From: Ochrobactrum sp. BTU1
Lineage (GTDB): Bacteria > Pseudomonadota > Alphaproteobacteria > Rhizobiales > Rhizobiaceae
Reading direction: 5' to 3'
NCBI GenBank assembly: GCA_018798825.1
Contig: CP076354.1
Span: forward strand, 2,164,001-2,228,000
DNA: 64,000 nucleotides
The translations under genes were made by a program, and so were the position numbers. How positions within the stretch are numbered: position 1 is the stretch's first letter; the number at the start of each line of letters is the position of its first letter. The notes under the pieces are model-generated. The model was not told the origin of the DNA. It saw nothing but the letters and a program-made list of their open reading frames with translations, and searched no databases. Shown in pieces: positions 26,141 to 41,327 of the stretch.

Positions 26141-26575
26141 ATGAACCCCAATATTGAAGTTGCCAATGGTGCCTGCCACTGCGGAACCGTTCGCTTTCGC
26201 GTCAAACTATCAGATGGCCTTAACACTGCGCGCCGCTGCACCTGTTCCTATTGCCGAATGCGTGGAGCTGTCGCCGTTTCCGCAGATCTGAATGGCGTTG
26301 AAGTTCTGGAAGGCGAAGATGCGCTGACGCTCTACACATTCAATACGGGCGCGGCCAAGCATTATTTCTGCTCGAAATGCGGGATCTACACCTTCCACCA
26401 GCGCCGATCCAACCCTCAACAATTCGGTGTCAATGCCGCCTGTCTCGAAGGCGTCTCACCTTTCGACTTCAAGGTCATTCCGGTCAATGACGGCGTGAAC
26501 CACCCGTCCGACAATCCGAACTACAAAGGCTCCGGCATCGCGGGTTATCTGCGTTTTGAGGTGAACGAAGACTAA
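26141..26575 (+). CDS. GFA-family zinc protein
   Basis: A 144-residue protein of the glutathione-dependent formaldehyde-activating (GFA) fold. The zinc cysteines are in CHCG, CTCSYC and CSKCG, all intact. GAGGAGA precedes the ATG. The founding member Gfa was proposed to speed S-hydroxymethylglutathione formation; most relatives are uncharacterised. The gene ends by overlapping the stop of the convergent GMC oxidoreductase gene by four bases. Confidence 0.87.
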   Translation: MNPNIEVANGACHCGTVRFRVKLSDGLNTARRCTCSYCRMRGAVAVSADLNGVEVLEGEDALTLYTFNTGAAKHYFCSKCGIYTFHQRRSNPQQFGVNAACLEGVSPFDFKVIPVNDGVNHPSDNPNYKGSGIAGYLRFEVNED

Positions 26576-28209
26576 CCCCGCGCGCGCCGCTTGTGTTCGT
26601 TTTTCTCCCATGAAAACACAACAGGCGGCAGCGGGTCGAGACCGCGAATAATATCCGCACCCTTTTCGCCGACCATAATGGTCGGCGCATTGGTGTTGCA
26701 CGAGGGAACGCGCGGCATGATCGAGCTGTCGCAAACCCGCAGACCTTCAAGACCGCGCACTTTAAGTTCCAGATCGACAACGGCCATCGCATCTGTCCCC
26801 ATCCTGCAGGTGCCGACCGGATGATGATCGGTCTTGGCATTGGCGCAGGCATAATCGAACAGATCATCGTCACTGACGACCTTTGGCCCCGGCAGACGTT
26901 CGGCCATGACATAGGGCTTTAGTGCGTCTTGCTGCAAAATTTCGCGCGCGATCTTCAGACCTTCAAGCGACATCTTCCGATCATGCGGATCACTCCAGTA
27001 ATTCGGATCGATGAGGGGTGCTGCAGCCGGATCATTGGAAGCCAGCCGCACGGTTCCACGCGAACGCGGATGCAGATAAGCAGAATTAAGCGTCACGCCT
27101 GCATTCTTGAGCTTCTCAACGCCAGCTTCAATGCCCGAACCAAGCCCCAGATGAAACTGAATATCCGGTGAGCGGGCATCCGGATCAGCATACCAGAAGC
27201 CGCCGGTCTCAAAGAGGCTGGAGGCCACCGGGCCGGAGCGCAGAAAGATATATTGCAGGCCCGCGCCCAGCGTCCGATGCAACTTTGCCACGCCATCATA
27301 GGTGTGATCGCCCGTACATTCGGAAATGACAAACAGATCGAGGTGATCCTGCATGTTCTCACCCACACCCGGCAGATCGTGCTTCACATTAACGCCAGCC
27401 TTTTTAAGTTGATCAGCAGGGCCGATACCCGATTGCAGCAGAAGCTTAGGTGAGCCGATAGCGCCGGACGAGACAATCACCTCACGGTTTGCGCGCAAAA
27501 CCTCGCCGTTCATCAGTGTAACGCCGGTGACTAGGGTCTTTTCCAGATCGATACTGCGCACCGGCGCATTCATCCGCACGGTAAGGTTCTTGCGATCCCT
27601 GATCGTCGCGAGATAGGCAAGGGATGCTGACGAGCGACGGCGATTGCGCTGGGTTAGCTGATAAAAGCCGACGCCTGCCTGCTCACGACCATTGAAATCC
27701 GGGTTATACGGAATGCCGAGTTCTTGACCCGCGCGGATATAGGCGTCGCAAATCGGCAATGGTGCAGACGGCATCGAAACGCCAAGCGGCCCGCCATAGG
27801 AGTGAAAATCATCATTGAAACGCTGATTGTCTTCGGCGCGTTTGAAATAGGGCAACACATGACGATAGTCCCAGCCGGTACAGCCGTCCTCATTAGCCCA
27901 GAGATCATAATCGGCTGCATTGCCGCGTGTATAAATCTGCGCATTGATGCTGGAGCCGCCGCCAATGACTTTCGCCTGCGTATAGCGCAACACACGGTTT
28001 TTGAGATGCTTCTGCGGAACGGTTTCCCAGCCCCAGCTCGCCACACCCTTGGTCATCTTTGCAAAACCGGCAGGCATGTGAAACAGCGGATTCCAGTCGC
28101 TTCCGCCTGCTTCCAGCAGCAGCACTTTGATCGCTGCATCTTCGCTCAGACGATTGGCGAGAACGCAACCGGCAGGACCGCCGCCAACAATGATATAGTC
28201 ATACTTCAT
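26572..28209 (-). CDS. GMC-family FAD oxidoreductase (choline/alcohol dehydrogenase-like)
   Basis: A 545-residue flavoenzyme. The FAD-binding GGGPAGCVLANRLSE is at residue 8, then the GGGSSINAQIYTRG signature, the second signature SSGAIGSPKLLLQSGIG, and the active-site His in DHHPVGTCRMG with an Asn in NTNAPTIMVGE. It resembles BetA/AlkJ-type alcohol dehydrogenases that oxidise a primary or secondary alcohol and pass electrons to a quinone or similar acceptor. It is the last gene of the eight-gene LacI operon, 20 bases after the SDR gene, with GGGAGGAG upstream. Confidence 0.92.
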   Translation of the reverse strand: MKYDYIIVGGGPAGCVLANRLSEDAAIKVLLLEAGGSDWNPLFHMPAGFAKMTKGVASWGWETVPQKHLKNRVLRYTQAKVIGGGSSINAQIYTRGNAADYDLWANEDGCTGWDYRHVLPYFKRAEDNQRFNDDFHSYGGPLGVSMPSAPLPICDAYIRAGQELGIPYNPDFNGREQAGVGFYQLTQRNRRRSSASLAYLATIRDRKNLTVRMNAPVRSIDLEKTLVTGVTLMNGEVLRANREVIVSSGAIGSPKLLLQSGIGPADQLKKAGVNVKHDLPGVGENMQDHLDLFVISECTGDHTYDGVAKLHRTLGAGLQYIFLRSGPVASSLFETGGFWYADPDARSPDIQFHLGLGSGIEAGVEKLKNAGVTLNSAYLHPRSRGTVRLASNDPAAAPLIDPNYWSDPHDRKMSLEGLKIAREILQQDALKPYVMAERLPGPKVVSDDDLFDYACANAKTDHHPVGTCRMGTDAMAVVDLELKVRGLEGLRVCDSSIMPRVPSCNTNAPTIMVGEKGADIIRGLDPLPPVVFSWEKNEHKRRARG

Positions 28210-28229
28210 GCGTTTCTCCTCCCGAGAAA

Positions 28230-28994
28230 CTAAAGCTTCGCAATCGACAGGCCACCATCGGCATTGATCGCCGAGCCCGTCGCAAAAATGAAATCGCCGC
28301 CTGCAAGCCCGGCCACAATAGCGCCGACATCGCCTGCCTCGCCCCAGCGTTTCATCGGCACCAGACCACCTTCGATCAGTCCGTCATAACGCTCGGCAAC
28401 ACGCGCTGTCATATCGGTGCGGATGATACCGGGACGCACCTCGAACACGCCGATCCGTGCTTCGGCCAGCCGAAGCGCAAGCCCCTGCACGAAGGCTGTC
28501 AGACCTGCTTTGCTGATGCAGTAATCAAGCCTTTCGGGCGAAGTCATTACCGACGAAACCGAACTGATCGTCACGATACTGCGTGGAAAACGCACATCCG
28601 TCACCGCCAGCATGGATTTCACCACCGCTTGCGTAAAAAACACCGTGCCGCGCAGGTTCACATCAATAATCGTGTCGAAATTCTCAGGTTTCAGCCCGAG
28701 AAAATCGCCGCGCTCGACCGAACCCATGCCCGCATTGTTGACCAGACAATCGATGCCGCCAAGCTCATTCACAACGGCTGCAACCGTCGCTTCATGCGTT
28801 TCGATAGACGCCAGATCGCTTTCAAAGAAAGCCACCCTTCCCCCAAGCCCGCGCAATTCTTGGATAACCGCCTCATCACGTTCACGGTCGGTAATCGCCA
28901 GATCAAACCCTTTGGCGGCCAAAGCACGCGCGATGCCAAGCCCGATACCACGCCGCCCGCCAGTCACCAGTGCCACGGGTCTTTGACGGCTCAT
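28230..28994 (-). CDS. SDR-family 3-oxoacyl reductase-like dehydrogenase
   Basis: A 254-residue SDR: TGGRRGIGLGIARAL, NNAGMGSVERGD, Ser in ISSVSSV, and YCISKAGL with the catalytic Tyr/Lys. It resembles FabG-type 3-ketoacyl reductases and sugar-ketone reductases. The ATG overlaps the upstream GMC gene stop (ATGA), and GGAGGT precedes it. Seventh gene of the operon. In a beta-oxidation-like scheme it could act on a 3-hydroxyacyl-CoA; in a sugar scheme, on a keto group. Confidence 0.87.
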   Translation of the reverse strand: MSRQRPVALVTGGRRGIGLGIARALAAKGFDLAITDRERDEAVIQELRGLGGRVAFFESDLASIETHEATVAAVVNELGGIDCLVNNAGMGSVERGDFLGLKPENFDTIIDVNLRGTVFFTQAVVKSMLAVTDVRFPRSIVTISSVSSVMTSPERLDYCISKAGLTAFVQGLALRLAEARIGVFEVRPGIIRTDMTARVAERYDGLIEGGLVPMKRWGEAGDVGAIVAGLAGGDFIFATGSAINADGGLSIAKL

Positions 28995-30484
28995 ACCAGT
29001 ACCTCCGTTTTAATGTGGTCGGCAACGCGCAGAGCCTGCGCCGCAATCGTCAGCGCAGGATTGACCGCAGCCGATGTCGGCAGGAACGATGCATCAACCA
29101 CATAGAGATTGGGATGGTCATAAGCACGGCAATAAGGATCAAGCGGCGCTGTTGCTGGATTATCGCCGATACGCACCGTGCCGCATTGATGCGATGGTGT
29201 TCGCCTGTCGAACGCCCGCGACAGCACGATTGGAAATCCTGCTGCACGCAGCGCGGATTTGAGCTTATCAACCAGCATCAAATGCGCCTTCCAGTTGGAA
29301 CGCACCCAATGCAGAATGATGCGATCACCATCCACGCTCACGCGACTTTCCGGCGATGGCAGATCTTCGCTCATCGCGTAAAAATCAATCGTATGTCCGG
29401 CAATGCGGTTTAAAAACCATTCCGGCACCTGGCGTATATTGGATTTCAGGATCGCGCCCGACACACGCCCCAGCAATTGCACATTGCCAAGCGGCGGCCC
29501 GCCAGCCCCATCGCTGAGATAATAATCGTTAAAGCCAAAAGTCTTCTGGTAGACGCTGTCATTGCGATAACGCGGATCAAACCCAATCACCGCACTGGCA
29601 TTGTGGTTCATGAAATTGCGACCGACCTGATCGGAACGGTTCGCCACTCCCGAACGCAGCAAAAGCGCTGCTGACTGCACGGCTCCCGCTGAAAGAATGA
29701 CCAGTTTGGGCCGAAGGACCAATGCCTCGCCATTCTTCGCATAGTGAACGGCGGTAATGGTTTTACCATCGGGCCCGGTTTCCAGCTTCGTTACCCGCGC
29801 GGAGGTTTCAAGCCGGACATTTGGATGTTTGAGCGCAAGTGCTAACGGACAAGTCTCCGCATCCATCTTGCCGTCATTGCTGTTGGGATGCGCGTCCCAC
29901 GGCGTTTTGGCCTTCGCCAGCCAGCGCTCAATATCAACACCCAATGGCAAGGAAGCCGGATGCAACCCTGCTCTCTTCAGCCGTGCACGCAAATCGGCAA
30001 TCGGGCTTTCATCACGGATGGCCGGATAGGAATAGGGCTTTGAATGATAGGGTTCGGTCGGGTCATCGCCCAATTCACCGCGCACCTGAAAAAGCTCTTC
30101 CGCCTTGCAATACCAGGGCTCAAGCTCATCATAGGCGAAGGGCCACGCCGGAGACACGCCTTCAAGATGCGCAAGCTCCTCAAAATCCTCGCGCCGATAG
30201 CGCACCAGCACTGCGCCATAGAATTTGGAATTGCCGCCGACATTGTAATAATTTCCGGGATTAAACGGCGTGCCATCCGTCTCATACCAGAACTCTTTCG
30301 GGCGAAAGAAGCCACGCTGGAAAATGGCGCGTGGGTCGCGGTTTTCCGGTCTGTCCGGCAAATGCTCGCCCGCCTCCAGAATGAGAATGTCTGCACCGGA
30401 CGCTGCAAGACCGGCGGCCATTGTCGCTCCGCCGATACCCGATCCGATAATGACGATATCCGGCTGTCCTCCCAAAGCCGTCAC
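28991..30484 (-). CDS. GMC-family FAD oxidoreductase, sugar/sterol-oxidase-like branch
   Basis: A 497-residue flavoenzyme starting with GTG at 30484 (AGGGA just upstream, three bases after the aldehyde dehydrogenase stop). FAD motif IIGSGIGGATMAAGLA, then NVGGNSKFYGAVLVRYR, SAGAVQSAALLLRSG, the active-site His in SHQCGTVRIGDNP and Asn in SAAVNPALTIAAQAL. This C-terminus is nearer to pyranose/gluconate/cholesterol oxidoreductases than to choline dehydrogenase, so the two GMC enzymes of this operon are paralogous families, not duplicates. Confidence 0.9.
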   Translation of the reverse strand: MTALGGQPDIVIIGSGIGGATMAAGLAASGADILILEAGEHLPDRPENRDPRAIFQRGFFRPKEFWYETDGTPFNPGNYYNVGGNSKFYGAVLVRYRREDFEELAHLEGVSPAWPFAYDELEPWYCKAEELFQVRGELGDDPTEPYHSKPYSYPAIRDESPIADLRARLKRAGLHPASLPLGVDIERWLAKAKTPWDAHPNSNDGKMDAETCPLALALKHPNVRLETSARVTKLETGPDGKTITAVHYAKNGEALVLRPKLVILSAGAVQSAALLLRSGVANRSDQVGRNFMNHNASAVIGFDPRYRNDSVYQKTFGFNDYYLSDGAGGPPLGNVQLLGRVSGAILKSNIRQVPEWFLNRIAGHTIDFYAMSEDLPSPESRVSVDGDRIILHWVRSNWKAHLMLVDKLKSALRAAGFPIVLSRAFDRRTPSHQCGTVRIGDNPATAPLDPYCRAYDHPNLYVVDASFLPTSAAVNPALTIAAQALRVADHIKTEVLV

Positions 30485-30487
30485 TCC

Positions 30488-32002
30488 CTACTTAGCCTGC
30501 GGCATCCACCAGCCGGTACGCGCACCGATATGCATGTTGAGCGTCTTGGTTTCGGTATAATCCTCCACCGCATGACGACCCAATTCGCGGCCCAGACCTG
30601 ACTGGCGGTAACCGCCAAAAGGCAGTTCCGGCGTGCCGTCCATGAAAGTGTTCATCCAGACCGTACCAGCCCGCACCTTGCGGCCAATGTTCATGCAAGT
30701 ATCGAAATCGCAGCTCCACACGCCAGCTGACAAGCCATAATCAACCGCATTAGCAATGGAGATAGCCTCATCCACCGTATCAAAAGACAGCACCGACAGA
30801 ACCGGACCGAACACTTCTTCACGCGCAACAGCCATGTCGGCTTTCACACCTGCAATGATGGTCGGTCCCATATATTGGCCAAGGCCGAGATCCAGCACGT
30901 CGCCGCCATGGGCAATTGCAGCGCCCGCCTTTTTCGCCTGATCGACATAAGCGCCAACCTTGCTCAAATGCTGTGGCGTGATGATCGCGCCCACTTGCGT
31001 GCTGACATCGAGCGGATCGCCGACGATCACTTTCTTCGACAGATCAGCAACGCGCCCAACAATCTCATCGACAATCGAGCGATGCACGATCAGTCGCGAA
31101 CCGGCATTGCAGCACTCGCCTGCATTGAACCATGCGCCGAACACGGCCGCGTCGATAAAGGCATCCATATCCGCGTCCGGGAACAGGATTTGCGGGTTCT
31201 TGCCGCCAAGCTCCAGCGACACTTTTTTCAGCGTCTGCGCCGCATTGGCCATGGTCAGCTTGCCCACACCTGTGGAACCGGTGAACGACACCATGTCCAC
31301 ATCCGGATGCGTGCTCATATGCTGGCCGACATCAGCGCCCGTTCCGGTGATGATGTTGACGACACCGTCAGGGACGCCTGCCTCAGTCAGAATTTCGCCG
31401 AGTAACAATGTCGATCCGGAAGTCAGCTCCGAAGGCTTTACGACTGCCGTGCAGCCCGCAGCCAGAGCAAATGGCAGCTTCTGGCCCACGATCAAGAACG
31501 GGAAATTCCAAGGCGTAATGATGGAAACAACGCCAATTGCCTCACGCAGCACGACACCAAGGGTGCCATCACCCAGCGTATTATAGCTTTCACCATGCAG
31601 ATCGCGTGCGAGCGCTGCCGCATAGCGCCAGATATCGACCGAACCGGCAATTTCGCCGCGCACCTGAGAAATTGGTTTGCCGGCTTCAATTGCATCGAGA
31701 TAAGCAAGCTCTTCGGCCCGCGCTTCAATCAGATCGGCGGCTTTCAGCAAAATCAGCGAACGCTGAGATGCGGTTTTAGACGACCAGCGCCCATCATCGA
31801 AAGCCTTACGTGCGCTAGCTACCGCGCGATCCACATCGGCCTTCTTGCCAGCGGGATAACGGCTCACCGTCACGCCATGGCCGGGCGCTACGCGTTCAAT
31901 AGTCTCGCCGCTTTGGCTTCCAACCCATTTACCATCGATCAGCATCGAGAATTCACGAACTTCAAGCCCGTTTAGCGGCTGCGGTTTTACGACTACGCTC
32001 AT
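30488..32002 (-). CDS. NAD(P)-dependent aldehyde dehydrogenase
   Basis: A 504-residue ALDH-superfamily enzyme. Motifs: ITPWNFPFL, KPSELT, FTGSTGVGK, the catalytic Glu in LELGGKNP and the catalytic Cys in NAGECCNAGSR. It oxidises an aldehyde to a carboxylic acid. I use the ATG at 32002, which overlaps the stop of the enoyl-CoA hydratase gene (TGATG) with AAGGA eight bases upstream; an ATG at 32008 is the alternative. Fifth gene of the operon; it would supply an acid to the CoA-transferase. Confidence 0.93.
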   Translation of the reverse strand: MSVVVKPQPLNGLEVREFSMLIDGKWVGSQSGETIERVAPGHGVTVSRYPAGKKADVDRAVASARKAFDDGRWSSKTASQRSLILLKAADLIEARAEELAYLDAIEAGKPISQVRGEIAGSVDIWRYAAALARDLHGESYNTLGDGTLGVVLREAIGVVSIITPWNFPFLIVGQKLPFALAAGCTAVVKPSELTSGSTLLLGEILTEAGVPDGVVNIITGTGADVGQHMSTHPDVDMVSFTGSTGVGKLTMANAAQTLKKVSLELGGKNPQILFPDADMDAFIDAAVFGAWFNAGECCNAGSRLIVHRSIVDEIVGRVADLSKKVIVGDPLDVSTQVGAIITPQHLSKVGAYVDQAKKAGAAIAHGGDVLDLGLGQYMGPTIIAGVKADMAVAREEVFGPVLSVLSFDTVDEAISIANAVDYGLSAGVWSCDFDTCMNIGRKVRAGTVWMNTFMDGTPELPFGGYRQSGLGRELGRHAVEDYTETKTLNMHIGARTGWWMPQAK

Positions 32003-32778
32003 CACCATTTTCCTTCAAAATTTGCTTCGCGCTTTTCGGTAAATGAGCGCACGCCTTCTTTCAGATCGCTGGTCTTGGCGACCAGAATGGAACCCAGCGC
32101 CTCAACTGCCGTGCCATTGTCCTCGCCATTGGCGACCGACAGCATCAGCTTGGAAATTTCCAACGCAGCCGGTCCGCGCTTGGCCACCCGCGCCGCATAG
32201 TCTTGCGCCGCCTGCAGAGCTGCGCCCGTCTCCACTACATGATCGACAATCCCATGCGACAGCGCTTCCTCGGCCGTGAACATTTCGCCACCCAGCACCA
32301 TGCGGCGCACGATCTGCGCACCGAAACGGCGCACGAGACGCTGCGTGCCCGACCAGCCGGGGATCATACCAAGCGATGTTTCCGGCAGGCCGATTTTTGC
32401 CTGTCGTTCGACAATGCGGATATCGGCGGCACCTGCCAGTTCCAGACCACCACCCAAAGCATGACCATTCATTGCTGCGATCAGCGGCACACGCAAAGTC
32501 GCAAGCCGCTCGAACACCCGATGACCGTAGCGCACCCAGGCATGGCCGAATTCTGCCGGTTCCATGCCGCCCCAGGCCTTGATGTCGCCGCCTGCGGAAA
32601 AAGCCTTGCCTTCGCCGGTCAGGATCGCAACGCGCACGGTGCACTCCGCTTCCACCCGATCACAGGCCGCAGACAATTCGTGCAGAAGCTCGATATCAAA
32701 CGCATTGAGCTTTTCGGGCCGCTTGATGGTTATGACGGCGATGTGGTTCTCAATCGAGATGTCTATCCGTTGAGCCAT
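32002..32778 (-). CDS. Enoyl-CoA hydratase/isomerase family protein
   Basis: A 258-residue crotonase-fold protein: AFSAGGDIKAWGG forms the oxyanion hole, MNGHALGGGLELAGAADIRI the second one, then GLPETSLGMIPGWSGTQRL. The Glu in the latter matches a catalytic Glu of hydratases. It acts on an acyl-CoA, adding water or shifting a double bond. It abuts the CoA-transferase stop (next base) and overlaps the aldehyde dehydrogenase start. Confidence 0.92.
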   Translation of the reverse strand: MAQRIDISIENHIAVITIKRPEKLNAFDIELLHELSAACDRVEAECTVRVAILTGEGKAFSAGGDIKAWGGMEPAEFGHAWVRYGHRVFERLATLRVPLIAAMNGHALGGGLELAGAADIRIVERQAKIGLPETSLGMIPGWSGTQRLVRRFGAQIVRRMVLGGEMFTAEEALSHGIVDHVVETGAALQAAQDYAARVAKRGPAALEISKLMLSVANGEDNGTAVEALGSILVAKTSDLKEGVRSFTEKREANFEGKW

Positions 32779-34380
32779 TTATGCCTCCAGCTTTCGCGCA
32801 GGCTTTTGCGGCAGTGTCAGACCAATCGGCTCGTCACGGAACAGTGCCTCATCCATGAGTTTAAGCTGATCCGAAACAATCAGCGGAAACTCGGCTTGGT
32901 CCAGAATATGCGTCTGCAAATCCACACCCGGCGCAATCTCGGTGAGTACAATCCCTTCCGCCGTGAGCTTCAAAACCGCGCGTTCGGTGACATAAGTAAC
33001 ATCCTGCCCCTGCTCGACACCACGCGGACCGGAGAAAGTAACATGCTCAACCTCATTAACGAGCTTTTTGAGCTTACCTTCCTTCTCAATCACCAGCTTG
33101 CCGTCAGCGACCGACAATTTCGCCCCTGCATTGAACATGCCGGAGAAGACGATCTTCTTGGCCCTTGCAGTTATATCGACAAAACCGCCAGCACCAGCAG
33201 TCACATGCGGACGGAATGACAGCTTCGACACATTGACCGAGCCGTCGCGTCCGATCTCAAGGAAGGACAGAAGCGAGGCGTCGAAGCCTGCGCCCTGAAA
33301 ATAGGTGAACTGATAGGGTGACGGCATATAGGCGTCTGCATTGGACGCACAGCCAAAGGCAAAGTCGAGAAGCGGCACGCCGCCAACAGCACCCTGCTCA
33401 ATCACCCAGGTCACCGCACCATGCAGACCCTCTTCCAACAGAATGCGCGGCACATTGGCGGAAATGCCGAAGCCAAGATTAACCGCACTTCCTGCCTGCA
33501 ACTCCTGTGCGACACGCCGCGCAATCGCCTTCTGAATATTGAACTCCGGCAAGCGGAATGTATCGAGCGGACGGAAAATCTCGCCGGAAATTGCCGGATC
33601 GTAAAGTGTCTGTGTTGTCTGCTTCTGGTCGGGATCAACGACGATATAGTCAACCAGAACGCCCGGAACGCGCACATCATGCGGTTTCAGCGTGCCTTCC
33701 TTGGCGATGCGCTTTACCTGCGCAATGACTATGCCGCCATTGTTGCGCGCAGCCAGCGCCTGATCCAGCCCACCAAGATATGCGCCCTCATGTTCATAGG
33801 TGAGATTGCCGCGTTCATCAGCAGTGGTAGCGCGGATGATCGTCACATGCGGCACGATATTGGGGAAATAGAGCCAGTCCTCACCTTCAAAACTGACCTG
33901 CTTGACGACCGGCTCCTCACGCGCCTTGTCGTTCATTGCCGATCCCTGACGCTTGGGATCAACGAAGGTATCAAGCCCCACTTTGGTCAGTACACCGGGA
34001 CGCTTGGCAGCCGCCTCGCGATGCATATCAAACAGAATACCAGACGGAATATTGTAGGCCGGAATCTCGTTATTGGTTATCATCTGCCAGATCAGCGGCG
34101 GCTCAGAACTTGATGGCCCTGACGGATAAGAACCACCGATGATCTTTTTAAGAAGCCCCTTTTTGGCGATGTAATCGACACCCTTGATGCCACTCATATC
34201 GCCAGCGGCAATTGGGTGCAGCGTGGTGATATTCTGGGGATGACCGGTTTCATCAAAACGCTCGCCAATGGCTTTCAGCATCATATCCGGACAGCCGAGG
34301 CCGCTCGACGAAGAAACCGAAACGACAGCGTTGTCGGGAATAAGTGATGCTGCTTCCGCAAATGAAATATGTTTGCTCAT
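32779..34380 (-). CDS. Acyl-CoA:acetate/3-ketoacid CoA-transferase (YdiF type)
   Basis: A 533-residue single-chain family I CoA-transferase. The alpha-like half carries the N-terminal DNAVVSVSSSSGLGCPD loop; the beta-like half has the catalytic Glu region VTWVIEQGAVGGVPLLD. It moves CoA between short acyl groups through a glutamyl-CoA thioester. The ATG at 34380 is used; AGGA lies about eleven bases upstream, and an in-frame TTG at 34389 is less likely. It starts five bases after the Gfo/Idh gene. Confidence 0.92.
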   Translation of the reverse strand: MSKHISFAEAASLIPDNAVVSVSSSSGLGCPDMMLKAIGERFDETGHPQNITTLHPIAAGDMSGIKGVDYIAKKGLLKKIIGGSYPSGPSSSEPPLIWQMITNNEIPAYNIPSGILFDMHREAAAKRPGVLTKVGLDTFVDPKRQGSAMNDKAREEPVVKQVSFEGEDWLYFPNIVPHVTIIRATTADERGNLTYEHEGAYLGGLDQALAARNNGGIVIAQVKRIAKEGTLKPHDVRVPGVLVDYIVVDPDQKQTTQTLYDPAISGEIFRPLDTFRLPEFNIQKAIARRVAQELQAGSAVNLGFGISANVPRILLEEGLHGAVTWVIEQGAVGGVPLLDFAFGCASNADAYMPSPYQFTYFQGAGFDASLLSFLEIGRDGSVNVSKLSFRPHVTAGAGGFVDITARAKKIVFSGMFNAGAKLSVADGKLVIEKEGKLKKLVNEVEHVTFSGPRGVEQGQDVTYVTERAVLKLTAEGIVLTEIAPGVDLQTHILDQAEFPLIVSDQLKLMDEALFRDEPIGLTLPQKPARKLEA

Positions 34381-34385
34381 AATTT

Positions 34386-36421
<2,036 letters not shown>

Positions 36422-36441
36422 ATCCGTCTCCTGTTCCCTTA

Positions 36442-36470
36442 AGTTAATTGGAACGATCCAAATTTGTCAA
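36442..36470 (-). promoter_or_regulatory. Promoter and LacI operator O1 of the catabolic operon
   Basis: On the minus strand TTGACA (36470-36465) and TTAACT (36447-36442) are separated by 17 bp. The spacer is filled by the near-palindrome TTGGAACGATCCAA (36448-36461), centred on CG as usual for LacI-family sites. A repressor bound here would block polymerase directly. Confidence 0.75.
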
Positions 36471-36592
36471 CTTTTTTAATAAACACGGAATTGCCATATT
36501 CTTGACATCGGTTTTCCTTAATTTTTGAAGCATTTCGCGACGCTAAATGCAAAATCAGAGCCTGAAATCGCATTTTTTAAGCACCATATTGA

Positions 36593-36612
36593 AATTTGGA
36601 ACGATCTAAATT
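36593..36612 (+). promoter_or_regulatory. LacI operator O2 upstream of the DUF993 gene
   Basis: AATTTGGAACGATCTAAATT shares TTGGAACGATC-AAATT with operator O1, 148 bp away centre to centre, and ends 31 bases before the DUF993 start. A weak CTGAAA (36562) - 17 bp - CATATT (36585) promoter would start transcription inside it; that promoter is a guess. Confidence 0.7.
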
Positions 36613-36643
36613 ATTCATGTCGTCGTGGAGTTGGAGGACTGAC

Positions 36644-37822
36644 ATGAGCGCATCATCAGAAAACGTGCTGACCCTGCCATTCGCTGACGGCAGTGTAAAA
36701 CCATATCACCTGATCGGCACCCCGACACCGCGCCCCGCCTCACCTCCGAAATTCAATCGCATTGCCTATGCCGCAGCGCATGTTGTTTCAGACCCGCTGG
36801 GAGACAATAATCCGTGGAACGATCCGACGATTGATTGGGATGCGACTATGGCTTTCCGGCATCACCTCTGGAGCCTCGGCTTTCAGATCGCGGAAGCGAT
36901 GGACACCTCGCAACGCGGCATGGGTCTCAATTGGGCCGGAGCGCAGGAGCTGATCCGCCGCTCGCTGGCAGAAAGCAAGACCGTAGCAAGCGCTGACCTG
37001 GCCTCTGGCGCTGGCACCGACCATCTCGATCCTTCTGAGGCAAAAAGCCTTGATGACGTGATTAAAGCCTATGAAACCCAGGCTGAATTCATCGAGAAGC
37101 ACGGCGGTCGTTTCATTCTGATGGCCAGCCGCGCACTCGCCCGCATCGCCCGCTCGCCAGAGGATTATGCCAAGGTTTATGGCCATATTCTCACCCATGC
37201 CCGAGATAAGGTCGTGCTGCACTGGCTGGGCGACATGTTCGACCCACAACTCAAAGGTTACTGGGGTTCAGACAAGTTTGAAGACGCGCTTGATACGGTC
37301 ATCGGCATTATAGAGGCCAATCGCGACAAGGTTGAAGGCATCAAGATTTCGCTGCTCGAAGAGCGCTACGAGATCGCGCTGCGCAATCGCCTGCCGGACG
37401 GCGTTCTCTGTTTCACGGGCGATGATTTCAACTATGCACCACTCATCGAAGGCGACGGCGACAAGCACAGTCATGCGCTGCTTGGCATTTTTGACGCCGT
37501 AGCACCACAGGCTTCAAGCGCGCTTGCCGCCCTTGCCGACGGTGACAATGCCCGCTTCCGCGCGATCATCGAGCCAACTGTGCCACTATCGCGCAAAATC
37601 TTTGAAGCACCGACGCAATATTACAAAGCAGGCGTTGTGTTTCTCGCCTGGCTCAATGGACATCAAAGCCATTTCACCATGCCCGCCGGAATGCAATCGG
37701 CACGCAGTATCCTGCATTATGCCGATATCTTCCGCCTCGCGGATCAGGCAAATGTTCTCGATCATCCGGAAATTGCCCTTACCCGCATGAAAACTCTTCT
37801 GGCGGTTTACGGCTTAAACTGA
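36644..37822 (+). CDS. DUF993 family protein (dihydrodipicolinate-synthase-like)
   Basis: A 392-residue cytosolic protein from the ATG at 36644 (GGAGGA nine bases upstream). The sequence is the DUF993 family: RIAYAAAHVV near the start, MDTSQRGMGLNWAGAQELI, HWLGDMFDPQLKGYWGSD, KISLLEERYE, and a C-terminal alpha-helical part. Members are predicted TIM barrels related to class I aldolases of the dihydrodipicolinate synthase group. The Lys in IKISLLEE could be the Schiff-base residue. Divergent from the LacI operon and sharing its operators, it is probably the aldolase/lyase step of that pathway. Confidence 0.85.
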   Translation: MSASSENVLTLPFADGSVKPYHLIGTPTPRPASPPKFNRIAYAAAHVVSDPLGDNNPWNDPTIDWDATMAFRHHLWSLGFQIAEAMDTSQRGMGLNWAGAQELIRRSLAESKTVASADLASGAGTDHLDPSEAKSLDDVIKAYETQAEFIEKHGGRFILMASRALARIARSPEDYAKVYGHILTHARDKVVLHWLGDMFDPQLKGYWGSDKFEDALDTVIGIIEANRDKVEGIKISLLEERYEIALRNRLPDGVLCFTGDDFNYAPLIEGDGDKHSHALLGIFDAVAPQASSALAALADGDNARFRAIIEPTVPLSRKIFEAPTQYYKAGVVFLAWLNGHQSHFTMPAGMQSARSILHYADIFRLADQANVLDHPEIALTRMKTLLAVYGLN

Positions 37823-38050: not shown

Positions 38051-40246
38051 ATGAAAAAATATAAGATAATTATAAAATCTATAATACTTAGTTTTTTCAC
38101 TTCTCAAGCATGGGCTGATGTACCCACTTTCGAGGTTCATGGTTCATTTGGCGGTGAACGTGCTGATGCGGCTGGCATATCAGCGGATGGCAAAACAATT
38201 GGCATACGCCGATCATCTGCGGGCGGTGATTACGATAAATCCTTTATCGTGACGCCGGCCGGTATAACCGATATCGGCTCGTTAAGCGGTTCAGAACGAA
38301 CAGCACTTTTGGCAGTTTCATCCAATGGTCTTGCCGCAATAGGCAGCGCATTTGTCAATCAAAATGAATCACATGCCTTCTGGTGGTCCCGCGAAACCGG
38401 AATAAGAGATATCGGAACACTGGGCGGAACGAATTCATATTCCAGAGGAATTTCGGCCAACGGAACTGTTGTTACCGGAGACAGCTACCTCGCAGGCGAC
38501 ACCATAACCAATGCATTTCGCTGGACACTTCAGGATGGCATTACCAGCATCGGTACACTTGGCGGGTCATCGTCATTTACCCATGCGATTTCGGCTGATG
38601 GCAGTACGATCGTGGGTTATAGCTTGACGGCATCGTCCGATGTCCACGCCTTCCGATGGACCGAAGCCAGTGGCATTATAAGTCTTCAAACTTTGGGTGG
38701 GAACACGTCGACAGCGCGTGCCGTTTCCGCTGATGGGAGTGTCGTTGTTGGCACCAGCGACACCGCCGATAGCTCCCAGCATGCATTCCGCTGGACTGCC
38801 GAGACCGGCATGGTCGATATCAATAGTCACGGAAATGCGCTGCATAGTATTGCCGATCTGGTTTCAAACGATGGCAAGGTTGTGGTGGGGACAGCCTCAT
38901 TTAACAATGGGTTCAACCAGGCTTTTCGCTGGACCCAGGAAGCAGGCATGATCAGTCTGGACTCGTTAGGCGGCGGCCTGTCTCATGCTCTCAGCCTCAG
39001 CGACGATGGCACAGCGATCGTTGGCTATAGCTATACCGATACGATGACGCTTCGTGCATTTCGCTGGACAGCCAGTGACGGCATGATTGATTTGGGAACT
39101 ATTGGCGGCAACAACGCGATTGCCTGGGATGTATCAGGGGATGGCAGTGTGATTGCCGGAACAGCTGAAACAGCTGAAGGAGCGCTTCACGCCACGTTGT
39201 GGAAATTTCCAAAGCCTGATCCGGGAACGATACCAACTGAGCCTGAAGGCAACCCAGGTACCATGCCGACAAATCCGGGCTCCGGTCCAACGGAAAACCC
39301 TTCTGCTGAAAAACCTGTCACGTCTCCAACAACCATCGACCTTGATCATACGGTTGCGACGGTCTTCACACAGGCAAGTAACAGCTTTTCGGCGATGGAG
39401 GCTCAGCGCCTTACATTGAACAAGCTGCAAAACTTCTGCGACATCGAAAGAGCCGGTCAAACCTGCTATTCGCTTTTTACCGATATCAGCGGCTTTGGCG
39501 GTCAGAAGGATTTGCTGACAGGTTTCACGCTTGGTCACGGCTTCACCGACAATTTTTCAGCAGGTGTCACCCTCGCCCATTCTTTCTGGCGTGATCTGCC
39601 GGACGGTTTTGATACCGGAAGCGATAATTTCGGCACTGGCATCTTTGCGCAGTGGAAAGACAAGACCGCTATAGGGGATTGGTATATGCGGGCGAGCCTG
39701 GCAACCAATCGCTATGATACCGACATCACGCGGCCAAAGCTCGCCTATACAGAAGCTGGAACCGGCGAAAGCAGGTTACAAGGCTGGAGCACTGCGCTGG
39801 AACTGGGGCGGACAGACAATCTCAATTTCCATAATGCCCGTCTCGGCTATTATGGCGGTCTGGGCTACAGTAATCTGTCCATGGATGGCTATACGGAAAG
39901 CAATGCGCTGTTTCCGTTCACTTATGGCGAAATGAAGTATGAGCTGACAACGGCTTATACGGGTGCAAATTTCGCTATGCCGCTGACCAACAGAATCCGA
40001 TGGTCGATCAATCTCGAAATCGAGCAGGATGTTGCGCACAAGGATCCCGAATTTGACGCCAGAGCTGATTATATCGGCGTATTGACGCTCGATTCCGACT
40101 TCTCACATACCCGAGGCTCCGCCTGGACAAGTGTGAGTTATGCCGTCAGCGATGCGGTTGAACTTTCATTGACACCCTATGTGACCCGCACGGCATCGCG
40201 GGACAATGCGTTTGGTGCCATGGTCCGGCTTTCCGGGAAATTCTGA
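38051..40246 (+). CDS. Autotransporter with HAF-repeat passenger
   Basis: A 731-residue outer-membrane protein. Signal peptide residues 1-22 (SQAWA-D). Residues 32-386 are eight tandem units of 45-46 residues (starts at 32, 78, 124, 170, 215, 260, 306, 351) of the form LGG...AxSADGxxxVG...HAFRWT...GMxDLGT, the HAF family extracellular repeat. A Pro/Thr/Gly-rich linker (387-430) follows, then the beta-barrel autotransporter domain to a terminal Phe. The repeated beta-rich unit suggests a closed beta-propeller displayed on the surface; function is unknown, adhesion is a guess. The start is AT-rich, unlike neighbours, and upstream DNA is too, hinting at acquired DNA. Confidence 0.9.
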   Translation: MKKYKIIIKSIILSFFTSQAWADVPTFEVHGSFGGERADAAGISADGKTIGIRRSSAGGDYDKSFIVTPAGITDIGSLSGSERTALLAVSSNGLAAIGSAFVNQNESHAFWWSRETGIRDIGTLGGTNSYSRGISANGTVVTGDSYLAGDTITNAFRWTLQDGITSIGTLGGSSSFTHAISADGSTIVGYSLTASSDVHAFRWTEASGIISLQTLGGNTSTARAVSADGSVVVGTSDTADSSQHAFRWTAETGMVDINSHGNALHSIADLVSNDGKVVVGTASFNNGFNQAFRWTQEAGMISLDSLGGGLSHALSLSDDGTAIVGYSYTDTMTLRAFRWTASDGMIDLGTIGGNNAIAWDVSGDGSVIAGTAETAEGALHATLWKFPKPDPGTIPTEPEGNPGTMPTNPGSGPTENPSAEKPVTSPTTIDLDHTVATVFTQASNSFSAMEAQRLTLNKLQNFCDIERAGQTCYSLFTDISGFGGQKDLLTGFTLGHGFTDNFSAGVTLAHSFWRDLPDGFDTGSDNFGTGIFAQWKDKTAIGDWYMRASLATNRYDTDITRPKLAYTEAGTGESRLQGWSTALELGRTDNLNFHNARLGYYGGLGYSNLSMDGYTESNALFPFTYGEMKYELTTAYTGANFAMPLTNRIRWSINLEIEQDVAHKDPEFDARADYIGVLTLDSDFSHTRGSAWTSVSYAVSDAVELSLTPYVTRTASRDNAFGAMVRLSGKF

Positions 40247-40304: not shown

Positions 40305-41327
40305 TCAGCGCCAGCCAAGTCCCGGTGCAACATGCTTGAGGATCGACTCGATCACATGCGCGTTGTACTCGACACCAAGCTGGTTTGGCACGGTCAGAAG
40401 CAGTGTATCAGCTTCAGCAACCGCCTCATCCTTGGCAAGTTCCTTGATCAGCTGGTCTGGTTCAGCTGCATAGGACCGGCCAAAGACCGCACGCAGATTT
40501 TCCTCGATATAGCCAATCTGGTCCTGCTCTTTGCCGCCATTGCCGAAATAGGCACGGTCACGATCATTCACCAGCGCAAAAATGCTGCGGCTTACTGAAA
40601 CGCGCGGCGTGCGCGTATGTCCGGCTTCTTTCCAGGCTTCACGATAAGCGCGAATCTGCTTGGCCTGCTGAATATGCAAAGGCTCGCCGCTTTCGTCCTT
40701 CTTCAAGGTCGAGCTTTGCAGGTTCATACCAAGCTTTGCGGCCCAGATTGCGGTTGCGTCAGAAGCAGCCCCCCACCAGATACGATCTCTGAGACCTTCC
40801 GAGTGCGGTTCGATCTTCAGAAGCCCCGGAGGGTTTGGAAACATTGGTCGCGGATTTGGCTGTGCAAAGCCTTCGCCTTTCAGCGCCTCAAAGAACACCT
40901 CGCCATGCTTGCGGCCCATATCGGCATCAGTCATGCCTTCTTCCGGCTCATAGCCGAAATAACGCCAACCATCGATCACCTGTTCGGGCGAACCACGGCT
41001 GATCCCGAGCTGCAGGCGGCCTTTGGAGATCAGATCCGCAGCGCCTGCATCTTCGACCATGTAAAGCGGGTTTTCATAGCGCATATCGATGACGGCAGTA
41101 CCGATCTCGATCTTGCTGGTCCTGGCACCTACGGCTGCAAGCAGCGGAAATGGCGAAGCAAGCTGGCGGGCAAAATGATGCACACGGAAATATGCGCCAT
41201 CCGCACCCAACTCTTCAGCAGCGACAGCAAGGTCTATCGACTGCAAAAGCGCATCGCTTGCAGAACGCGTGCCGGACTGTGGCGAAGGCGACCAATGGCC
41301 GAATGAGAGAAAGCCGATATTTTTCAT
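40305..41327 (-). CDS. LLM-class flavin-dependent oxidoreductase
   Basis: A 340-residue luciferase-like monooxygenase-fold protein: GADGAYFRVHHFARQLASPF, then the IEIGTAVIDMRYENPLYMVEDAGAAD and GRLQLGISRGSPEQ segments that line the FMN site in this superfamily. Partner reductase and substrate are unknown. It stands alone, convergent with the autotransporter gene. Confidence 0.87.
   Translation of the reverse strand: MKNIGFLSFGHWSPSPQSGTRSASDALLQSIDLAVAAEELGADGAYFRVHHFARQLASPFPLLAAVGARTSKIEIGTAVIDMRYENPLYMVEDAGAADLISKGRLQLGISRGSPEQVIDGWRYFGYEPEEGMTDADMGRKHGEVFFEALKGEGFAQPNPRPMFPNPPGLLKIEPHSEGLRDRIWWGAASDATAIWAAKLGMNLQSSTLKKDESGEPLHIQQAKQIRAYREAWKEAGHTRTPRVSVSRSIFALVNDRDRAYFGNGGKEQDQIGYIEENLRAVFGRSYAAEPDQLIKELAKDEAVAEADTLLLTVPNQLGVEYNAHVIESILKHVAPGLGWR

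What the first reader, a model, noticed from the sequence alone, without database searches (positions are those of the whole stretch)
26572..37822. Possible undescribed catabolic system: LacI-controlled operon joining an anhydrofructose-reductase-like enzyme, CoA chemistry, two GMC oxidases and DUF993
Seen: eight minus-strand genes with overlaps or gaps of at most ~20 bases (lacI, Gfo/Idh, CoA-transferase, enoyl-CoA hydratase, ALDH, GMC, SDR, GMC) and a divergent DUF993 gene sharing operator sequence. Known: GMC enzymes plus ALDH turn an alcohol into an acid; family I CoA-transferases activate acids; crotonases hydrate enoyl-CoAs; DUF993 resembles dihydrodipicolinate-synthase-type aldolases; the Gfo/Idh member resembles 1,5-anhydro-D-fructose reductase. 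Inference: one pathway that oxidises a cyclic polyol or anhydrosugar, activates the product as a CoA ester and cleaves it. I know no described pathway with this exact set. No transporter is in the cluster.
Basis: partly seen in the sequence, partly recalled or inferred. Interest (0 to 1): 0.8.

Follow-up and report, generated by a model that had tools for sequence, protein, structure and literature searches.

The report
Conserved operon for anhydrosugar breakdown
A conserved set of genes in soil bacteria, built around an enzyme related to a known reductase of the sugar 1,5-anhydrofructose, looks like an undescribed oxygen-tolerant route for breaking down such sugars, and it suggests a first job for the unnamed protein family DUF993.

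Summary
In detail: eight minus-strand genes spaced -22 to +20 bases, a divergent DUF993 gene, two near-identical operators between them. The cluster is not local. Among the 80 best DUF993 loci, LacI, Gfo/Idh, CoA-transferase, enoyl-CoA hydratase and ALDH each recur in 76-79, in the same order, and all 80 have at least one operator site. In 68 of the 80 a sugar ABC importer gene follows ALDH, and in 13 of 14 extended loci the same GMC-SDR-GMC trio follows the importer; some versions add a Dabb protein and a glycerate 2-kinase. The window's version lacks importer, Dabb and kinase. The Gfo/Idh protein is 74% identical to the characterised 1,5-anhydrofructose reductase (AFR) of Sinorhizobium morelense. 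DUF993 has the dihydrodipicolinate-synthase fold and an invariant lysine probably at the Schiff-base position. Best reading: aerobic breakdown of 1,5-anhydrohexitols by C6 oxidation, CoA activation, dehydration, ring opening and DUF993 cleavage to C3 units. Substrate class about 0.45, exact route about 0.2; nothing has been assayed. Against it: three Mesorhizobium genomes lack AFR but keep the rest, and the published proposal runs through mannose. I found no such pathway in the open-licence papers searched. Bench tests in the window's organism are referred.

The parts
36644..37822 (+). DUF993 gene (start ATG 36644 preferred over TTG 36596): dihydrodipicolinate-synthase-fold protein, proposed C-C cleavage enzyme of the pathway
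36596..36609 (.). operator copy 2 (TTGGAACGATCTAA), just before the likely DUF993 start
36448..36461 (.). operator copy 1 (TTGGAACGATCCAA), upstream of lacI
35366..36421 (-). LacI-family repressor, first gene of the operon
   Evidence: PF00356 and Peripla_BP_3; present in 79 of 80 loci
34386..35387 (-). Gfo/Idh gene, close homolog (probable ortholog) of NADPH-dependent 1,5-anhydro-D-fructose reductase (AFR)
   Evidence: 74.3% id to 2glx, 71.5% to 4koa; K94/D176/H180 in 76 of 76 aligned copies
32779..34389 (-). family I CoA-transferase, YdiF-like
   Evidence: PF01144; YdiF 2ahu 388 bits; Glu331 in 79 of 79
32002..32778 (-). enoyl-CoA hydratase (crotonase) with both catalytic glutamates
   Evidence: PF00378; 3-hydroxypropionyl-CoA dehydratase 5zai 184 bits; E113 79 of 79, E133 78 of 79, the other copy with no aligned residue
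30488..32008 (-). aldehyde dehydrogenase
   Evidence: PF00171 568 bits; E266 and C299 in 76 of 76
28991..30484 (-). GMC2: FAD sugar dehydrogenase-like GMC protein; a relative sits beside AFR in two records where the fetched stretch has no CoA genes
   Evidence: FAD-glucose dehydrogenase 127 bits, fructose dehydrogenase 73 bits; AFR-GMC2 in Bradyrhizobium and Arthrobacter
28230..28994 (-). SDR dehydrogenase (PRK12745 family)
   Evidence: NF009386 377 bits over cut-off 250
26572..28209 (-). GMC1: choline-dehydrogenase/alcohol-oxidase type, proposed primary-alcohol (C6) oxidase
   Evidence: PF00732/PF05199; the likely S. meliloti counterpart SMc04390 is named L-sorbose dehydrogenase in a table of PMC12542648

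Best explanation
The cluster is one LacI-repressed catabolic unit for aerobic use of 1,5-anhydrohexitols (1,5-anhydro-D-fructose, -glucitol, -mannitol). SHOWN by sequence: a conserved unit with a conserved operator; a close AFR homolog; intact catalytic residues in CoA-transferase, hydratase, ALDH and AFR; DUF993 has the DHDPS fold with an invariant lysine. INFERRED route: GMC2 oxidises C2 of anhydroglucitol to anhydrofructose; AFR reduces it to anhydromannitol; GMC1 and ALDH oxidise C6 to the acid; the CoA-transferase makes the CoA ester, with product CoA recycled; the hydratase removes C4-OH with C5-H (cis in this ring); the ring opens to the 2-keto-3-deoxy acid, possibly helped by the Dabb protein where present. 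Starting from the manno compound this acid is 2-keto-3-deoxy-D-gluconate, from the gluco compound its C5 epimer (L-galactonate type), which would explain why AFR makes anhydromannitol. DUF993, directly or after oxidation by the SDR, cleaves it to a pyruvate unit and a glyceraldehyde/glycerate unit, and the glycerate 2-kinase found in some versions takes the latter into glycolysis.
For: At least one operator site in 80 of 80, also in Roseibium, Paraburkholderia, Peteryoungia. A binding-protein gene follows ALDH on the same strand in 68 of 80; GMC2-SDR-GMC1 follow the importer in 13 of 14 extended loci. DUF993 lies downstream of GMC1 on the same strand in Roseibium, Paraburkholderia and Peteryoungia. 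AFR homology and residues. The importer's binding protein (from L085) is of glucose type. AFR beside GMC2 in Bradyrhizobium and Arthrobacter. Glycerate 2-kinase linked in S. meliloti, 4 of 14 extended loci, Microvirga (beside DUF993), Roseibium, Peteryoungia. Stereochemical bookkeeping. S. meliloti proteins SMc04390-SMc04392, by annotation GMC1, SDR and GMC2, are lower together in a phaR mutant.
Against: I found no growth, induction or assay datum that ties the whole operon to 1,5-AF or 1,5-AG. Three Mesorhizobium genomes (L088, L091, L093) keep the rest but have no AFR ortholog (best matches 29-32% id), so AFR is not essential to the rest. Paraburkholderia has AFR but no GMC2 in the operon. 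In 21 of 80 loci a second LacI gene on the other strand stands between ALDH and the importer, so the importer/GMC half may be controlled apart there. A 2025 review states that S. morelense turns anhydromannitol into mannose by a P450-like step. Hydration of the enol ether has no sure enzyme; the window has no Dabb or glycerate kinase. The S. meliloti binding protein SMc04396 was reported as induced by dextrin. DUF993 also occurs in other gene settings. Its lysine register rests on a weak profile match (E 0.066), and the DHDPS tyrosine position is His (my reading).
Confidence: 0.45

Rival explanations
1. Same conserved unit, but the true substrate is another imported pyranose derivative (a sugar acid, glycoside or polyol), and AFR's action on 1,5-AF is a side activity. 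The oxidation, CoA activation and cleavage logic stays.
For: Binding protein is glucose-like, not known to be specific for anhydrosugars; loss of AFR in three genomes with the rest kept; dextrin reported as inducer of SMc04396; DUF993 paralogs sit with other sugar enzymes and transporters.
Against: Of 80 loci, 76 keep AFR, all with the three residues; the characterised AFR came from an isolate obtained on 1,5-AF as sole carbon source (review); AFR-GMC2 neighbours recur in Bradyrhizobium and, with sugar importer genes, in an actinobacterium.
Confidence: 0.35
2. Anhydrohexitol substrate, but another chemistry: a ring ketone at C3 or C4 (GMC2/SDR) opens the ring by beta-elimination or makes a beta-keto-acyl-CoA, and DUF993 acts on a different keto intermediate.
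For: GMC2 is nearest to sugar dehydrogenases, whose site of attack varies (the variation is recalled); SDR is of the 3-ketoacyl reductase type; enol-ether hydration in the main route has no sure enzyme.
Against: The hydratase keeps both glutamates of true hydratases, unlike ring-cleaving crotonases (recalled); the glycerate 2-kinase of some versions fits a C3/C3 split.
Confidence: 0.13
3. Published route: AFR makes anhydromannitol, a P450-like enzyme makes mannose, and the neighbouring CoA genes serve something else.
For: Stated for S. morelense in PMC12441222 section 5.1, read in full, citing Kuhn 2006, which could not be read. P450 genes exist in 15 of 15 genomes searched.
Against: The review says the P450-like enzyme is still unidentified; the one P450 match of this genome is about 2.05 Mb away in contig coordinates, about 0.31 Mb if the contig is a closed circle; I saw no P450 gene in the operon in 14 extended loci or in eight opened records (one carries almost no annotation), though unlabelled flanking ORFs were not scanned for P450; the AFR and CoA-transferase genes abut or overlap.
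Confidence: 0.05
4. The genes are neighbours by chance and do not share a function.
For: None found beyond gain and loss at the edges (ABC, Dabb, kinase, GMC trio) and a second LacI gene in 21 of 80 loci.
Against: Order and operator conserved across Alphaproteobacteria and in Paraburkholderia.
Confidence: 0.02

Closest known systems
1,5-anhydro-D-fructose reductase of Sinorhizobium morelense (PDB 2glx) and the 1,5-AF catabolism described for that strain
   Same: Gfo/Idh gene is its close homolog (74.3% id, residues kept)
   Different: Described route goes to mannose by an unidentified P450-like step; the operon has CoA-transferase, hydratase, ALDH, two GMC enzymes and DUF993 instead
Anaerobic 1,5-anhydroglucitol / anhydromannitol pathways of gut bacteria (Ma et al., as told in PMC12441222)
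   Same: Probably the same class of substrate
   Different: Those use a phosphotransferase system and a glycyl-radical enzyme on the 6-phosphate; here oxidative, CoA-linked enzymes and, in most versions, an ABC importer
Itaconate degradation module (CoA-transferase, itaconyl-CoA hydratase, citramalyl-CoA lyase)
   Same: Logic of acid activation by a CoA-transferase, a hydratase, then a C-C lyase (start of the abstract of PMC12290011 in a search listing)
   Different: Lyase here is a DHDPS-fold protein and the substrate would enter through sugar oxidation
L-sorbose dehydrogenase / sorbosone dehydrogenase type oxidation (recalled)
   Same: GMC enzyme plus ALDH oxidise a sugar primary alcohol to an acid; SMc04390 carries that name
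   Different: Followed here by CoA activation
Dihydrodipicolinate synthase / N-acetylneuraminate lyase superfamily (PF00701)
   Same: Fold of DUF993, and by weak profile alignment the lysine and GDD strands
   Different: No PF00701 match, longer, tyrosine position His (my reading)

Membership tests
1,5-anhydro-D-fructose reductase (AFR) | full-length homology well above other Gfo/Idh families | tested here: met
   2glx 554 bits, 4koa 536 bits, next PDB family 114 bits; 74.3% id
1,5-anhydro-D-fructose reductase (AFR) | catalytic K94, D176, H180 (positions recalled) | tested here: met
   76 of 76 aligned copies
1,5-anhydro-D-fructose reductase (AFR) | NADPH-dependent reduction of 1,5-AF to 1,5-anhydromannitol | not testable with these tools
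   needs an enzyme assay
DHDPS/NAL superfamily (DUF993) | (beta/alpha)8 fold of the superfamily | tested here: met
DHDPS/NAL superfamily (DUF993) | Schiff-base lysine on the sixth strand | tested here: inconclusive
   G[IV]K lysine invariant, 92 of 92 loci, and on the DHDPS lysine in hhalign, but E only 0.066; side chains were not overlaid
DHDPS family proper (PF00701) | match to the family model | tested here: not met
   only PF06187 matches at E <= 0.001
Family I CoA-transferase | CoA_trans domain and catalytic glutamate | tested here: met
   PF01144; E331 79 of 79; that this Glu is the catalytic one is recalled
Enoyl-CoA hydratase (crotonase) | two catalytic glutamates (positions recalled) | tested here: met
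   E113 79 of 79, E133 78 of 79, the other copy with no aligned residue
LacI-family local repressor | HTH and sugar-binding domains plus conserved palindromic operator at its own operon | tested here: met
LacI-family local repressor | effector | not testable with these tools
   needs binding assay
Levoglucosan pathway (levoglucosan dehydrogenase) | score over the NCBIfam cut-off | tested here: not met
   106.8 bits against cut-off 650
Itaconate-type module | citramalyl-CoA lyase gene beside CoA-transferase and hydratase | tested here: not met
   the nine genes of the cluster are assigned to other families; rest of genome not searched
Glycyl-radical 1,5-AG pathway | glycyl-radical enzyme and phosphotransferase in the cluster | tested here: not met
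   none among the nine cluster genes; rest of genome not searched

The most novel reading that the evidence does not exclude
A new oxygen-tolerant, CoA-dependent pathway for 1,5-anhydroglucitol/anhydrofructose in soil Proteobacteria, in which AFR resets C2 so that ring opening yields 2-keto-3-deoxy-D-gluconate, and DUF993 is a new class of lysine-dependent lyase (or diketo-acid cleaving enzyme) that splits it into two C3 units.
Probability: 0.2. Interest if true: 0.85.

Novelty: new variant of a known kind. Interest (0 to 1): 0.62.

Why it matters
1,5-Anhydroglucitol is in virtually all foods analysed and in human blood, and its 6-phosphate harms neutrophils in two inherited diseases (PMC12441222, passages). 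[quoted passage not shown] This operon names concrete candidate genes for such a route, with an importer, in laboratory rhizobia. It also gives DUF993, a name that no paper in the held library contains, a testable role, and it would extend CoA-transferase/hydratase chemistry to sugars.

Tried and rejected
FAH-family hydrolase as a stand-in for DUF993: it seemed so in Peteryoungia (L193) and Komagataeibacter (L190), but Peteryoungia has DUF993 in the same unit, so the idea was dropped.

A wider regulon: the nine one-mismatch operator places elsewhere in the genome were fetched. Some lie inside long ORFs; of the others none stands before an obvious sugar-catabolic operon (one is between a LysR gene and a thiamine-pyrophosphate enzyme gene); judged by eye. 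Places with two mismatches were not followed. The importer ortholog on contig C2 has no operator site near it at up to 2 mismatches (one 3-mismatch site in 14 kb).

GMC2 structure: the model was too poor to use (pLDDT 59.3); no fold search was run with it. Names of the 120 listed of 7974 GMC2 homologs say nothing on substrate. NCBIfam gave no match over cut-off for the Gfo/Idh gene and none at all for DUF993.

Literature: no paper holds DUF993; none holds anhydroglucitol, dehydrogenase and Agrobacterium together. The listings of searches (20 to 25 of thousands listed for 36 and 110) showed no CoA-linked anhydrosugar pathway. Only open-licence papers were searched.

First neighbour clustering was blurred by antisense ORFs in GC-rich DNA and was replaced by targeted tblastn. 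A first regular-expression count of hydratase and ALDH residues (47 and 0 of 79) was faulty in its patterns and was replaced by counts on alignments. A first count of the DUF993 motif with a stricter pattern gave 90 of 92; the two misses carry GIKIS..TGDD.
Full report
WHAT WAS CHECKED. The window lies in contig C1 (2164001-2228000) of a 5.88-Mb, four-contig genome. The nearest named records by DUF993 are called Brucella sp. 21LCYQ03 and other Brucella, Ochrobactrum or Falsochrobactrum species; I take it for an environmental Ochrobactrum-type genome. Gaps are -22, -4, 0, -7, +3, -4, +20 bases. Past GMC1 a plus-strand ORF (26141-26575) meets it tail to tail with 4 bases overlap, which probably ends the unit.

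OPERATOR. The LacI/DUF993 intergenic stretch holds TTGGAACGATCCAA (36448) and TTGGAACGATCTAA (36596). In the whole genome these are the only exact places of TTGGAWCGWTCYAA. Of the 80 fetched DUF993 loci, 74 have two sites with at most one mismatch to TTGGAWCGWTCCAA and 6 (L037, L050, L051, L057, L073, L076) have one; no other such site occurs in those stretches. The motif is also at the operons of S. meliloti (L186), Roseibium (L188), Paraburkholderia (L189), Peteryoungia (L193) and, at one mismatch, Microvirga (L192); none at up to 2 mismatches in the Bradyrhizobium stretch L187. The TTG start at 36596 lies inside the second operator, so the ATG at 36644 is preferred.

THE UNIT IS CONSERVED. 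Among these 80, tblastn finds LacI in 79, AFR in 76, CoA-transferase in 79, hydratase in 79, ALDH in 76, in the same order and strand. Misses: L073 is a 3.4-kb contig; L088, L091 and L093 lack AFR; L056 lacks ALDH; L090 and L092 stop near a contig end. A sugar-binding-protein gene follows ALDH on the same strand in 68 of 80; the 12 without are seven of the Brucella/Ochrobactrum/Falsochrobactrum group (L031-L035, L056, L072), L046, and four on short contigs (L073, L090, L092, L106). In 21 of 80 a second LacI gene on the other strand stands between ALDH and that gene, so the second half may be controlled apart there. In 18 of 18 other genomes tested a GMC2 ortholog exists (64-78% identity; the G069 copy has an in-frame TAG). 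I extended 14 of those 18: in 13, permease and ATPase genes are followed by GMC2, SDR, GMC1; the exception, L156, has GMC2 apart. A Dabb gene follows in 5 of 14 and a glycerate 2-kinase in 4 of 14, counting L148, the source of both queries (families). As a wider count, DUF993 itself is in 36 of 60 relatives and in none of 14 control genomes.

OUTSIDE RHIZOBIA AND IN ANNOTATED RECORDS. Of 35 plasmid records with an AFR relative at E<=1e-60 I opened eight. S. meliloti Ak57 has the whole operon, its AFR gene already named so, ending in glycerate kinase. Microvirga has DUF993, glycerate kinase, an HbpS-like gene and Dabb on the divergent side. Roseibium and Peteryoungia have SDR, GMC1, Dabb, DUF993, LacI, glycerate kinase in a row, and Paraburkholderia has SDR, GMC1, DUF993. 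So DUF993 belongs to the unit whichever way it points. Bradyrhizobium has AFR and GMC2 side by side (63% and 62%), Arthrobacter AFR and GMC2 (44% and 44%) after ABC genes; no CoA gene was found in those stretches, and no DUF993 in those two records. Komagataeibacter has AFR (48%) with an MFS gene and a hydrolase.

WHAT THE PROTEINS ARE. The Gfo/Idh protein is 74.3% identical to 2glx (AFR of S. morelense) and 71.5% to 4koa; the next PDB family scores 114 bits against 554. K94, D176 and H180 (catalytic by my recollection of the AFR structure paper) are kept in 76 of 76 aligned copies. The CoA-transferase is YdiF-like, the hydratase's best PDB match is 3-hydroxypropionyl-CoA dehydratase; catalytic glutamates and the ALDH cysteine are kept in all copies that align there. 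GMC2 is nearest to FAD-glucose and fructose dehydrogenases, GMC1 to choline dehydrogenase/alcohol oxidases. The ABC binding protein, tested from Mesorhizobium L085, scores 545 bits to 4r2b, 362 to the sugar-binding protein 5dvf and 136 to the glucose-binding protein 2b3b; that 4r2b was solved with glucose is recalled.

MECHANISM. Shown: the parts and their conservation. Inferred: the order of reactions. Turning the Fischer projection, oxidation at C6 with loss of C4-OH and ring opening gives 2-keto-3-deoxy-D-gluconate from the manno compound, and the C5 epimer (L-galactonate type) from the gluco compound. This would give a reason for AFR's product. C4-OH and C5-H are cis in this ring, as a crotonase syn-elimination needs (established stereochemistry, recalled). 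A C3/C3 cleavage by DUF993 then feeds the glycerate 2-kinase. The weakest step is hydration of the enol ether. The absence of AFR in three Mesorhizobium genomes and of GMC2 in the Paraburkholderia operon suggests that the GMC2-AFR step is an entry module that can be missing.

KNOWN WORK. [quoted passage not shown] PMC4960864 (one passage) says SMc04396 is induced by dextrin; that SMc04396 is this operon's binding protein rests on recalled numbering, supported by SMc04390-SMc04392 being named sorbose dehydrogenase, SDR and dehydrogenase in PMC12542648 (passages), where all three are lower in a phaR mutant. PMC4560400 lists SMc04401 as a regulator with a predicted regulon (passages). The LacI survey PMC4052901 (outline and passages) does not mention this regulator in the passages seen. 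PMC13259140 and PMC5969746 (passages) cite AFR only.

THE WINDOW'S OWN VERSION. It lacks the importer, Dabb and glycerate kinase. An importer homolog stands alone on contig C2 (62-91% identity, no operator site at up to 2 mismatches nearby), and two glycerate 2-kinase homologs (68%) are elsewhere. It is thus a trimmed member of the family; GMC2 has no close second copy in the genome (next 28%).

VERDICT. A real, conserved catabolic unit that I could not find described, with a well-founded link to 1,5-anhydrofructose chemistry and an unproven route.

Noticed in passing
window 38051-40246 +: Large protein with repeated 'RW..GI..LGTLGG' (HAF-type) repeats and a C-terminal part that looks like an autotransporter barrel; found next to DUF993 in only some relatives.
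   Followed up: no
window 26141-26575 +: Small ORF with a CHCGTVRF motif (looks like a GFA/glutathione-dependent formaldehyde-activating family protein, by eye) ending tail to tail with GMC1, 4 bases overlap.
   Followed up: no
window 40305-41327 -: Luciferase-like monooxygenase gene that follows DUF993 in many relatives of the genus.
   Followed up: no
L088, L091, L093: Mesorhizobium ciceri-type genomes without AFR between lacI and the CoA-transferase gene.
   Followed up: partly
L057 2559-3689 and 20 further loci: Second LacI-family gene on the other strand between ALDH and the importer.
   Followed up: partly
L167 1004-8939: Second DUF993 copy near a CoA-transferase gene 68% identical to the window's, two aldo/keto-reductase-like genes and an acyl-CoA dehydrogenase.
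   Followed up: partly
L162-L166: DUF993 with a different Gfo/Idh gene (~385 aa), a xylose-isomerase-like gene and, in 4 of 5 (by eye), tripartite tricarboxylate transporter genes: an apparently different, unnamed pathway.
   Followed up: partly
L188 (Roseibium porphyridii, from a red alga): The operon is on a 49-kb plasmid of a bacterium isolated from Porphyridium; some red algae make 1,5-AF by alpha-1,4-glucan lyase (recalled).
   Followed up: no
L189 5720-6154: PLSDB lists a predicted VIM-73 over 435 bases in this Paraburkholderia record; the stretch is short for such a gene (recalled), so it may be a false call.
   Followed up: no
L186 record CP090106.1: 3.72-Mb S. meliloti record labelled pSymB carries this operon and a second DUF993; the size suggests it is the chromosome.
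   Followed up: no
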